DNA of 9,917 nucleotides, taken from an uncultured Chloroflexota bacterium (GTDB lineage: Bacteria > Chloroflexota > Anaerolineae > Aggregatilineales > Phototrophicaceae). The position numbers and the translations under genes are program-made. Positions 2,882 through 3,938 of the stretch are shown here, in pieces. How positions within the stretch are numbered: the first letter of the stretch is position 1; each line of letters begins with the position of its first letter. The stretch lies in NCBI GenBank assembly GCA_903904765.1, contig CAIVEA010000806.1:1-9917 (forward strand). Direction: 5' to 3'. The notes below the pieces were generated by a model. It did no database searches. It was not told the origin of the DNA and saw nothing but the letters and a program-made list of their open reading frames with translations.

Positions 2882-2906
2882 AAAACGGGGGATGCACCCC
2901 CGTTTT
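2882..2906. terminator. Bidirectional intrinsic terminator
   Basis: A perfect 10-bp stem, AAAACGGGGG (2882-2891) and CCCCCGTTTT (2897-2906), with a 5-nt loop. U-rich ends occur on both strands, so it can end both the plus-strand metal-binding gene (stop at 2863) and the minus-strand thioredoxin operon (stop at 2930). Confidence 0.88.
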
Positions 2907-2929
2907 GATTCCCCACTTGATTGTCCGCT

Positions 2930-3316
2930 TCATTCCGCGATCAGCGCCGTTTCGATGGCTTGTCGCAAATCCGCCTCGGCGACGATGCCGAATCCGCGAT
3001 AGGTTTCGATCTGATTGTTGTTGTAAAGCACATAGCCGGGATGACCGGGCAACCGGATGGACGCGAACAGGCTCTGCCCTTCGCCGCCATCTTGTGCATT
3101 CATAGCGCGGAACGTGACCCGATCGCTGTACTCTGCGGTGAGCCTATCCACGATAGGCTTCATTTCTTGTCAGGGGCCTCAGTTGTCGGTGAAGAAGAAC
3201 AGGAAGGTAGGTTTAGTCACTTCCTGCCCGGTTGCGGGCGTGCCACCGCCAGCCGGAGCGCAGGCGGCTAACAGGGCGACCAGCAGCAGACCGATGAGCG
3301 TGAACCAGCGTGACAT
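2930..3316 (-). CDS. Thioredoxin-fold lipoprotein with predicted double-selenocysteine (U-G-P-U) active site
   Basis: One frame runs from ATG 3316 to TGA 2930-2932, interrupted only by TGA at 3179-3181 and 3170-3172. Read as selenocysteine (Sec) these give 128 residues. Residues 1-19 are a lipoprotein signal peptide (MSRWF, hydrophobic core, lipobox L-A-A-C19), followed by a Gly/Pro/Thr linker. The thioredoxin domain starts with strand PTFLFFFTDN, then U46-G47-P48-U49-Q-E-M-K-P, aligning exactly with the family's W-C-G-P-C-K-x-x-x-P: both UGAs replace the catalytic cysteines. A cis-proline candidate is P93 (GHPGYVLY) and the C-terminal helix is ADLRQAIETAL. The mature protein has no cysteine except the lipidated C19. 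It starts 11 nt after the cytochrome c stop, with AGGA 9 nt upstream, so it is operonic. The predicted role is an extracytoplasmic thiol/selenol oxidoreductase. Alternatives are a pseudogene or a sequencing error. The hairpin at 3141-3159 and the intact downstream domain argue against both. Confidence 0.82.
3141..3159 (-). promoter_or_regulatory. Predicted bacterial SECIS element inside the thioredoxin gene
   Basis: On the mRNA (minus) strand AGCCUAUC-GUG-GAUAGGCU forms a perfect 8-bp stem with a 3-nt loop starting with G. There are 18 nt between the second in-frame UGA (3170-3172) and the loop, and 27 nt from the first (3179-3181). The bacterial SECIS consensus, from memory of published prediction rules, asks for a loop of 3-14 nt with a G in its first two positions, a stem of 4-16 bp and a distance of 16-37 nt; all are met for both UGAs. 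The hairpin encodes K-P-I-V-D-R-L of the conserved helix after the active site, as expected for a bacterial SECIS, which must lie within the reading frame. Confidence 0.75.
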
Positions 3317-3327
3317 AAGCCTGTATC

Positions 3328-3897
3328 CTAACTGCTTGCCGATGGCGTGACGGTGGCGAAGGGCGATTGGGGCGTGGTTTCGACCCCTAGTGTATCCCAG
3401 ATTTCCTGCAATTTGCGGGTGACTTCCGCTTGATAGGCGCGTTGTTCGTCCGTCCACCATAGTTTGATGTAGGCATAGATTTCCATGATGGTCGCGTCGT
3501 CGAAGGTTGCGCCGAAGGCCGGCATCGGGTAGCGGTTCAGCCCGTTGGTGATTCCTTCTTTTGTCACGCGCAGTAGCACCTGATCCGCATATTGCCAGAT
3601 CAGCCCCGTTGAGTCGTGGGCGGGGACGACTTTCATGCCCATTGCGCGGGTTTCGGCGGCGCTGTCGCCCGTTTGCCCTTCGCCATGATAGCCGTGACAG
3701 TGGGCGCAGAATCGCTGGTAGTTGGCTTCGCCGCGCTGGAGCGCCGGATCGGTGAAAGCGGAGGTGGGCAGGGCATCCGGTCCCACTAGCGTAATGGGCA
3801 GCAGCGTGGGCGCGGGGGTGGCTGCGCCGGAGCAGGCCGCCAGCAGGATGCACGCTGCCAAGAGGACGATTATGACGCGGAGTGCGTTGAAGGTCAT
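3328..3897 (-). CDS. Class I c-type cytochrome lipoprotein
   Basis: A 189-residue exported monohaem cytochrome. Residues 1-22 form a lipoprotein signal (MTFNALR, hydrophobic core, lipobox L-A-A-C22), followed by a Pro/Thr/Ala-rich linker. The haem-binding motif is C64-A-H-C67-H68, followed by GYHGEG, a common pattern (CxxCHGxxGxG) in class I cytochromes. The likely sixth ligand is M125 in the YPMPAFG loop, and a C-terminal helix IMEIYAYIKLWW closes the fold. It should sit on the outer face of the membrane and pass electrons to or from a respiratory complex; the partner is not in the window. I choose ATG 3897, which has GAGG 8 nt upstream, over the TTG at 3930, which almost coincides with the predicted transcription start. 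It is the first gene of an operon with the thioredoxin-fold selenoprotein. The C-terminal tail is Ser/Thr/Pro-rich. Confidence 0.9.
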   Translation of the reverse strand: MTFNALRVIIVLLAACILLAACSGAATPAPTLLPITLVGPDALPTSAFTDPALQRGEANYQRFCAHCHGYHGEGQTGDSAAETRAMGMKVVPAHDSTGLIWQYADQVLLRVTKEGITNGLNRYPMPAFGATFDDATIMEIYAYIKLWWTDEQRAYQAEVTRKLQEIWDTLGVETTPQSPFATVTPSASS

Positions 3898-3938
3898 CGG
3901 TGTGGCCTCGAATGCTGGAATGCGGATCAATACCGTTT

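What the first reader, a model, noticed from the sequence alone, without database searches (positions are those of the whole stretch)
2930..3316. Apparently undescribed exported thioredoxin with two selenocysteines (U-G-P-U) replacing both catalytic cysteines
Seen: a single frame with a lipoprotein signal, an intact thioredoxin domain and exactly two in-frame TGA codons, separated by Gly-Pro, at the positions of the two cysteines of the C-G-P-C motif. Flanking residues (FFFTDN before, QEMKPIVDRL after) keep the family pattern. Known: selenocysteine is encoded by UGA and typically replaces catalytic Cys; thioredoxin-like selenoproteins usually have one Sec (CxxU or UxxC), and UxxU is known to me mainly from SelL-type Prx-like proteins. 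Inference: a diselenide/diselenol active site. Random mutation hitting only these two codons, with no other damage in the gene, is improbable.
Basis: partly seen in the sequence, partly recalled or inferred. Interest (0 to 1): 0.94.

Follow-up and report, generated by a model that had tools for sequence, protein, structure and literature searches.

The report
Thioredoxin with two selenocysteines
A gene from an uncultured relative of a Chloroflexi bacterium has UGA codons in place of both active-site cysteines of a thioredoxin that is predicted to be an exported lipoprotein; relatives in 47 genomes have the same two codons, and 92 of 98 related database proteins begin just after this place, so the codons are likely read as selenocysteine and a family of double-selenium redox proteins has likely been missed.

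Summary
Confirmed and extended. The gene is on the minus strand (3316..2930): a predicted lipoprotein with a thioredoxin fold and UGA at both catalytic cysteine positions. A sister genome (protein 86% identical) keeps both UGAs and has selA, selB, selD and a UCA tRNA-Sec. Among 396 class genomes the 31 best rows all carry two in-frame UGAs; I read 51 of 53 listed, all U-x-x-U. Codons behind the motif are nearly fixed and form a covarying hairpin whose loop lies 17 nt from UGA2 and 26 nt from UGA1, so one bacterial SECIS could serve both. 46 of 49 carriers have selA; one (G327) has no Sec gene over cut-off. 92 of 98 database homologues start just after the motif. A cytochrome c gene flanks 19 of 52 (fused once); copper-ATPase and HMA genes are common nearby, with none in 20 control stretches. 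The 2026 review table lists PF00085 thioredoxin only as UxxC. Likely role (inferred): exported diselenol/diselenide partner of a cytochrome c in copper or haem handling. A single origin of the U-x-x-U form is not settled: one tree supports it, a second with other rows does not.

The parts
2930..3316 (-). UxxU thioredoxin gene: predicted exported lipoprotein, 128 residues if both internal UGAs are read as Sec
   Evidence: frame; PF00085; AlphaFold2 model of residues 30-128, Cys for U, mean pLDDT 94.8
3260..3271 (-). lipobox L-A-A-C (residues 16-19)
   Evidence: a strict lipobox pattern fits 48 of 52 family rows, the other four read LPAC or LNAC
3179..3181 (-). UGA codon 1 (residue 46, first catalytic Cys position)
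   Evidence: in 52 of 52 UxxU rows and 10 of 10 UxxC rows read
3170..3172 (-). UGA codon 2 (residue 49, second catalytic Cys position)
   Evidence: in 52 of 52 UxxU rows
3141..3159 (-). hairpin AGCCUAUC-GUG-GAUAGGCU, proposed bacterial SECIS for both UGAs
   Evidence: 8-bp stem, -9.8 kcal/mol for the hairpin alone; covarying pairs in relatives
2930..2932 (-). TGA used as the real stop of the same gene (TAA in the sister genome)
3328..3930 (-). c-type cytochrome with lipoprotein-type signal, directly upstream (11 nt between the genes); likely same transcript
   Evidence: PF13442, PF00034; same-strand neighbour in relatives; fusion in L038
2660..2863 (+). small heavy-metal-associated (HMA, CopZ-like) protein, convergent neighbour
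   Evidence: PF00403; similar gene in 7 of 22 UxxU stretches, window included, 0 of 20 control stretches
2883..2907 (.). inverted repeat AAAACGGGGG-ATGCA-CCCCCGTTTT between the convergent genes, likely a two-way terminator
   Evidence: read in the sequence; no terminator scan was run

Best explanation
Window 3316..2930 (minus strand) encodes a predicted exported lipoprotein with a thioredoxin domain whose two active-site cysteine codons are both UGA; both are likely read as selenocysteine, guided by one hairpin just downstream that would serve both codons. Shown: the two UGAs, their conservation across a family, the conserved covarying hairpin, and Sec machinery in the sister genome and selA in 46 of 49 carriers. 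Inferred: SelB, bound to that hairpin, delivers Sec-tRNA first at UGA1 (loop 26 nt away) and then at UGA2 (loop 17 nt away); both spacings lie in the 16-37 nt range of the published bacterial SECIS model. Inferred, weaker (about 0.4): outside the membrane the U-x-x-U pair cycles between diselenol and diselenide and exchanges electrons with the neighbouring lipoprotein cytochrome c, in copper handling or in building copper/haem proteins of the respiratory chain; the His next to the cis-Pro could tune the pair or help it bind Cu(I).
For: Conservation: sister protein 86% identical with both UGAs; the 31 best rows in 396 class genomes have two in-frame TGAs, 53 such rows in 49 genomes in the (cut) listing; the 51 rows I read (47 genomes) and the window all have TGA-x-x-TGA at the motif. 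Selection: dN/dS 0.16. SECIS: over 62 UGA rows (60 distinct) 95.3% of cells paired, 25 cells changed on both sides (shuffled mean 5.9), covariation 0.258 against 0.148 shuffled and at most 0.126 when slid; codons fixed beyond the protein: GTG 52/52 (elsewhere in the same genes 130/324), ATC 50/50 (113/215), GGG 45/46 (91/393). Machinery: selA, selB, tRNA-Sec tca, selD in sister genome G001; selA at E <= 1e-50 in 46 of 49 UxxU genomes, background 318 of 396; selA also in G730, a further UxxU genome. Relatives: UxxC rows keep the hairpin (10 of 10) and all 13 UxxC genomes checked have selA; the four CxxC rows nearest by score (L059-L062) lie in genomes with no selA, selB or selD over cut-off. 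Databases: 92 of 98 homologues begin after the motif, 77 at the same position. Function: cyt c homologue beside 19 of 52 UxxU genes, same strand 19 of 19, 0 of 20 UxxC/CxxC loci, fused in L038; CopA-type ATPase 10 of 22, HMA 7 of 22, cyt c 11 of 22 against 0 of 20 control stretches; His before the cis-Pro in 51 of 52 rows (the other ends before it), 0 of 10 UxxC and 0 of 10 CxxC rows of that set.
Against: G327, one 5.63-Mb contig, has an intact UxxU gene and hairpin but no selA, selB, selD or tRNA-Sec over cut-off. G313 and G316 lack selA, and selB over cut-off; both have selD with UGA at its Sec site and G313 a tRNA-Sec, so gaps in draft genomes are likely. The Sec/Cys switch is not clean: two CxxC rows, L068 and L129, lie in genomes with selA. 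In 7 of 52 rows the expected hairpin is not the minimum-energy fold and in 11 of 52 fold and energy are not both met; 3 of 10 CxxC rows meet both. Two of five covariation measures do not beat shuffles (3 against 2.7; 6 against 6.9). Part of the hairpin's fixity comes from the conserved peptide P-[IV]-V-[NDH]. One origin of the UxxU form: 96/95 in the first tree, but not found when L129, L130, L136 and L137 were added and four distant CxxC rows left out. The His is not exclusive: L129 (CPFC) and L130 (UPVC) have it. Context queries were taken from the loci themselves, so part of those counts is self-match. The window's own genome is not held. Nothing shows Sec in the protein or any activity.
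Confidence: 0.88

Rival explanations
1. Sequencing error, pseudogene or two chance nonsense mutations in a CGPC thioredoxin.
For: Two UGAs interrupt the frame and the ORF list gives only pieces.
Against: Same two UGAs in 51 further loci from 47 genomes, purifying selection on both sides, no other in-frame stop in the domain of the rows read.
Confidence: 0.01
2. The UGAs are read as Cys (or another residue) by a suppressor tRNA or a changed code, not as Sec.
For: UGA falls at Cys positions; G327 has the gene without Sec genes over cut-off. I did not search carriers for a tRNA-Cys(UCA).
Against: The same gene ends with TGA, as does the window's phosphoribosyltransferase-like gene; a SECIS-like hairpin is conserved; 46 of 49 carriers have selA and the sister genome the full set; of five UxxU carriers searched for selD, the four that have it (G001, G313, G316, G352) carry UGA at its Sec site, G327 has none.
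Confidence: 0.03
3. The protein is a CcmG/ResA-like thiol (selenol) reductant for making c-type cytochromes in general.
For: Cytochrome c and, in 4 of 22 stretches, CcdA/DsbD-type membrane genes.
Against: ResA model NF002854 12.9 bits against a cut-off of 170; a general maturation factor would not be expected to be fused to one cytochrome.
Confidence: 0.2
4. It is mainly a copper protein: the two selenols and the His at the cis-Pro bind Cu(I) and pass it to copper sites outside the membrane.
For: CopA-type ATPase in 10 of 22, HMA in 7 of 22, cupredoxin-like genes in 4 of 22 stretches, 0 of 20 controls; His in 51 of 52 rows.
Against: No copper binding was tested; the closest context is the cytochrome; the fold is a plain thioredoxin; the His also occurs in a CxxC and a UxxC relative.
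Confidence: 0.2
5. Only one of the two UGAs is decoded efficiently by the hairpin; the other has its own signal or yields mostly truncated protein.
For: Double decoding needs two rare events; four rows (L029, L031, L032, L034) have a shifted or weak hairpin.
Against: Both UGAs are present in all 52 rows; UxxC relatives carry the same hairpin with UGA1 alone and it folds in 10 of 10 of them.
Confidence: 0.2

Closest known systems
Sec-containing thioredoxin, PF00085, UxxC (reviews PMC9312934 and PMC13188914; passages and table rows seen)
   Same: Thioredoxin domain, Sec at the first Cys position, bacterial SECIS inside the gene
   Different: Both positions are UGA here; lipoprotein signal; His before cis-Pro; tied to a cytochrome c; the tables give PF00085 thioredoxin as UxxC, with one Sec
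Prx-like thiol:disulfide oxidoreductase, PF00578, UxxC/UxxU (same reviews)
   Same: U-x-x-U motif in a protein recalled to have a thioredoxin fold
   Different: AhpC-TSA family; the window protein matches only PF00085 in Pfam at E <= 0.001
Prx-like 2 UxxU sequences of the Global Ocean Sampling survey (PMC2398784, passages seen) and SelL, the diselenide selenoprotein of Shchedrina 2007 (title seen in a reference list; paper not held)
   Same: Two Sec in U-x-x-U; diselenide in a redox motif by the title
   Different: Prx-like, not PF00085; SelL is recalled as an animal protein with a eukaryotic SECIS
Metal-binding UxxU protein NF041115 (review table, PMC13188914)
   Same: U-x-x-U and a link to metal handling
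   Different: A different family; not among the NCBIfam matches of the window protein at E <= 0.1
CcmG/ResA/TlpA extracytoplasmic thioredoxins
   Same: Exported, thioredoxin fold, cytochrome c context (recalled)
   Different: ResA model far below cut-off; UxxU and GHP here

Membership tests
bacterial selenoprotein | in-frame UGA at a redox Cys position, conserved in homologues | tested here: met
   52 of 52 rows read, both positions
bacterial selenoprotein | bacterial SECIS: 3-9 nt loop, 4-16 bp stem, G in first two loop positions, loop 16-37 nt from UGA, MFE <= -7.5 kcal/mol (model as in PMC13188914) | tested here: met
   Window: 8-bp stem with loop GUG (18 and 27 nt from UGA2 and UGA1), or 7 bp with loop CGUGG (17 and 26 nt); -11.1 kcal/mol for 38 nt. 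Family: fold and energy both met in 41 of 52
bacterial selenoprotein | Sec machinery in the genome | tested here: met
   Met in sister genome G001; window's own genome not held; not met in carrier G327
bacterial selenoprotein | selenium in the protein | not testable with these tools
   needs 75Se labelling or mass spectrometry
bacterial selenoprotein | Cys-containing homologues exist | tested here: met
   CxxC relatives; none falls in a supported UxxU subgroup, but the deep forks are not resolved
thioredoxin domain family PF00085 | Pfam score over gathering cut-off | tested here: met
   36 bits, cut-off 23.5
thioredoxin domain family PF00085 | thioredoxin fold with cis-Pro opposite the motif | tested here: met
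   model pLDDT 94.8, Foldseek best hits thioredoxins, TM about 0.8; P aligns with the cis-Pro column (the cis state itself was not checked)
TrxA equivalog (TIGR01068, NF047697) | score over curated cut-off | tested here: not met
   33.0 of 96.8 and 33.3 of 140 bits
Prx-like PF00578 UxxU selenoprotein | AhpC-TSA domain | tested here: not met
   no PF00578 match at E <= 0.001
ResA type | NF002854 (ResA) score over cut-off | tested here: not met
   12.9 of 170 bits; no CcmG model was singled out

The most novel reading that the evidence does not exclude
A family of exported thioredoxins kept in double-selenocysteine form: one SECIS hairpin decodes two UGAs nine bases apart, the product is a diselenide/diselenol pair with a copper-ready histidine, and it wires electrons to a dedicated lipoprotein cytochrome c, an all-selenium redox relay on the bacterial cell surface.
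Probability: 0.32. Interest if true: 0.87.

Novelty: new variant of a known kind. Interest (0 to 1): 0.8.

Why it matters
In the review tables seen, most selenoprotein families have one Sec. Here two UGAs replace the whole active site of a thioredoxin and are kept across 47 genomes read. It gives a natural test of what a diselenide pair adds, is a likely case of one SECIS serving two UGAs at different spacings, and links selenium to cytochrome c and copper. It also exposes a systematic annotation gap: 92 of 98 database relatives found are fragments that lack the active site.

Tried and rejected
Pseudogene or error: rejected on conservation and dN/dS. Rfam on the region: one chance hit, no SECIS family. 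Viral contigs: no relative; plasmids: none. Own-genome searches: not held. Weak tRNA-Sec hits in G327, G316 and the four CxxC genomes: ARAGORN calls the best ones tRNA-Ser (G316: tRNA-Leu), so not counted, although three passed the Rfam cut-off. A first SelD pattern found nothing; redone from the match coordinates. L140 (G149), listed with '2 TGA', turned out to be U-I-A-C with a second TGA that ends it. Single origin of UxxU: supported 96/95 in the tree, not found in the tree (other rows; 18% of bootstrap trees), so withdrawn as a firm claim; I lowered the novel case from 0.35 to 0.32 for this and for Cys row L129. Paper searches: UxxU + thioredoxin + selenoprotein, selenocysteine + Chloroflexi + selenoprotein (41), UGPU (50: any-term search that ranks papers with both terms first; the five listed have no UGPU), 'two selenocysteine' + three terms (51, none), UxxU/diselenide (76), bSECISearch (78), Anaerolineae + selenoprotein (82, six papers). 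No listing or passage named an UxxU PF00085 thioredoxin; only open-licence papers are held, and I read passages or table rows of six (PMC9312934, PMC13188914, PMC2398784, PMC12013277, PMC1794560, PMC5424206), no whole text.

Full report
OBSERVATION. The frame is on the minus strand: ATG at 3316, TGA at residues 46 and 49 (3181-3179 and 3172-3170), terminal TGA at 2932-2930. With Cys for U it matches Pfam thioredoxin PF00085 (36 bits, cut-off 23.5) and has a lipobox LAAC. A structure model from 49 family rows is a confident thioredoxin fold (mean pLDDT 94.8) whose best solved matches are thioredoxins (TM about 0.8).

A SISTER GENOME. No genome is held for the window. A scan of the species-genome collection with two peptide patterns, which can reach close relatives only, found one relative, L001, from a MAG titled 'uncultured Chloroflexi bacterium isolate Loclat_bin-07687'. 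Its protein is 86% identical and has UGA at the same two places. Four collinear blastn blocks of 83-95% identity join the two stretches. dN/dS between the two genes is 0.16 (33 synonymous, 20 other changes), 0.17 for the mature part before and 0.14 after the UGAs. That genome (G001) has selA (518.6 bits), selB (376.2), a tRNA-Sec with anticodon tca (68.6) and selD (369.8 bits, with an in-frame UGA in C-A-G-U-A-S-K).

A FAMILY. In 396 genomes drawn from the class of G001, 355 have some match at E <= 0.001; the 31 best rows all have two in-frame TGAs, and the (cut) listing holds 53 such rows in 49 genomes and 28 rows with one TGA. I read 51 of the 53 (47 genomes; G369 and G270 were not fetched) and the window: all 52 have TGA-x-x-TGA at the motif, with x-x being GP, AP, PP, PA, IP, VP and others. 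I also read 10 of the 28 one-TGA rows (all U-x-x-C) and 10 rows without TGA (C-x-x-C). Trees of about 100 columns: with the 52, the 10 UxxC and 9 of the 10 CxxC rows (L066 dropped), UxxU is one side of one branch, 96/95. With L129 (CPFC), L130 (UPVC), L136 (UIPU) and L137 (UVSC) added and four distant CxxC rows (L063, L064, L065, L067) left out, UxxU needs two changes and is one side in 18% of bootstrap trees; the subgroup L029/L031/L032/L034 then leaves it and the ULAC rows enter, at weak forks. So several UxxU subgroups are firm, a single origin is not. In 400 genomes drawn from the phylum, the listed two-TGA rows were five genomes of the class sample, G730 (U-I-P-U, confirmed, selA present) and G149 (in fact U-I-A-C with a second TGA that ends it). 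Whether G730 belongs to the class is not told.

DATABASES. A profile search of 5.8 billion proteins scored 565 candidates and gave 98 hits of which 92 start after the motif, 77 at the same position (the third residue after the second motif place); the 6 that cover the motif are CxxC proteins of 105-151 residues. The search with the window protein alone gave three hits, all such fragments, one of them the window's own. The DNA in front of these fragments was not looked up, apart from the window's own.

THE HAIRPIN. After UGA2 come 10-11 nt and then a stem-loop: in the window AGCCUAUC-GUG-GAUAGGCU. Over 62 UGA rows (60 distinct), 95.3% of 360 cells pair; 25 cells changed on both sides (shuffled mean 5.9); covariation score 0.258 (shuffled 0.148; best slid version 0.126). 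Two of the five measures do not beat shuffles: pairs with two-sided change (3 against 2.7) and further pair types (6 against 6.9). Typical switches: GCCCAU/AUGGGC, GCCUAU/AUAGGC (window), ACCCGU/ACGGGU (L024), GCCUGU/ACAGGC (UxxC). Codons under the hairpin are nearly fixed: GTG 52 of 52 Val (elsewhere in the same genes 130 of 324), ATC 50 of 50 Ile (113 of 215), GGG 45 of 46 Gly (91 of 393), CCC 47 of 52 Pro (112 of 321). The published bacterial SECIS model asks for a loop 16-37 nt from the UGA, a G in its first two positions, a 4-16 bp stem and MFE <= -7.5 kcal/mol (PMC13188914, passages). Here the loop is 17 nt from UGA2 and 26 nt from UGA1 (18 and 27 if the top pair forms), so one hairpin suits both; UxxC relatives carry it with UGA1 alone. 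Fold and energy are both met in 41 of 52 UxxU, 10 of 10 UxxC and 3 of 10 CxxC rows; 7 UxxU rows fold otherwise. L062 (CxxC) still has CCTGC-CGTGA-GCAGG, a likely relic.

SEC TRAIT. selA at E <= 1e-50 is in 318 of 396 class genomes (315 over cut-off) and in 46 of the 49 genomes with a two-TGA row. Of the three without, G313 has tRNA-Sec and a Sec-type selD, G316 a Sec-type selD, and G327 (one 5.63-Mb contig) has none of selA, selB, selD, tRNA-Sec over cut-off. All 13 UxxC genomes checked have selA (ten; G661, G038, G149). The four CxxC rows nearest by score (L059-L062) are in genomes without selA, selB or selD over cut-off; the tRNA-Sec model passed its cut-off in three of them, but ARAGORN reads these as tRNA-Ser. 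Against a clean switch: L068 (G311) and L129 (G410) are CxxC rows in genomes with selA; of the remaining five CxxC genomes two have selA (G287, G229) and three do not (G278, G271, G175). G327 is an unexplained exception: recent loss or a gap.

FUNCTION. Directly upstream in the window, 11 nt away and on the same strand, is a c-type cytochrome with a lipoprotein-type signal; on the other side, convergent, an HMA (CopZ-like) gene. A homologue of that cytochrome lies within the roughly 1-1.5 kb flanks (some cut by contig ends) of 19 of 52 UxxU genes (window included), always on the same strand, and of 0 of 20 UxxC/CxxC genes. In L038 both domains are one protein. In 22 longer stretches (window, L001, 20 fetched) there are CopA-type ATPases in 10, HMA in 7, cytochrome c in 11, DUF2085 in 5, CcdA/DsbD-type in 4, cupredoxin-like in 4, against none in 20 stretches from elsewhere in 11 of the same genomes; a redoxin query hit 4 against 1. 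Queries came from these same loci, so a part is self-match. A His precedes the cis-Pro in 51 of 52 UxxU rows (L096 ends before it) and in 0 of 10 UxxC and 0 of 10 CxxC rows of that set, but L129 and L130 have it too; it aligns with the Ile (thioredoxins) or Tyr (a PDI-like protein) before the Pro. From known thioredoxin anatomy (recalled) that residue touches the active-site pair, so it could tune the selenols or help bind Cu(I). I commit to an exported diselenol/diselenide partner of a cytochrome c in copper or haem handling, at about 0.4; the copper-site and cytochrome-maturation readings are rivals.

NOVELTY. The 2022 and 2026 reviews list PF00085 thioredoxin as UxxC (one Sec in the 2026 table); UxxU is listed for the Prx-like PF00578 family, a metal-binding protein (NF041115) and FmdB (passages and table rows). 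The 2008 ocean survey describes UxxU in a Prx-like 2 family. Searches for UxxU with thioredoxin, for Chloroflexi or Anaerolineae selenoproteins and for diselenide listed no such family; the deep-Sep paper has no 'UxxU' or 'Chloroflex' in its main text. NCBIfam has no model over cut-off. I therefore call it a new variant of a known kind: a double-Sec thioredoxin family.

Noticed in passing
L049-L051, L053, L055-L057 (about 1001-1400 of each): A related UGSC/UGAC (UxxC) thioredoxin family, mostly with a lipobox, with the same hairpin; its nearest CGSC/CGTC forms (L059-L062) sit in genomes without Sec genes over cut-off.
   Followed up: partly
L052, L054, L058: A second UxxC group, U-L-A-C, without a lipobox and with a hydrophobic stretch in front; the hairpin is kept.
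   Followed up: partly
L129 (G410), L130 (G661): A C-P-F-C and a U-P-V-C relative, both with G-H-P and both in genomes with selA: a possible Sec/Cys pair within Sec-using bacteria.
   Followed up: partly
L062 (complement of about 1103-1162): A CxxC form that still carries a SECIS-like stem (CCTGC-CGTGA-GCAGG), a likely relic of Sec use.
   Followed up: no
L026 / L075 (genome G327): Intact UxxU gene and hairpin in a 5.63-Mb single-contig genome where no selA, selB, selD or tRNA-Sec passed cut-off.
   Followed up: partly
L173-L176: selD of four carriers is itself a selenoprotein gene (C-A-G-U-A-S-K).
   Followed up: partly
L029, L031, L032, L034: A UxxU subgroup with a shifted or weak hairpin and an unsure place in the tree; how it decodes is open.
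   Followed up: partly
genomes G253, G326, G287, G215: Two UxxU genes in one genome.
   Followed up: no
L069 8151-8963, L075 8142-8993: A DsbA-like (Thioredoxin_4) gene lies between the UxxU gene and a cytochrome c gene.
   Followed up: partly
L136 (G730): A more distant U-I-P-U protein with K-S-H-P instead of G-H-P and hairpin GCCUAUCGUUGAUAGGC.
   Followed up: partly
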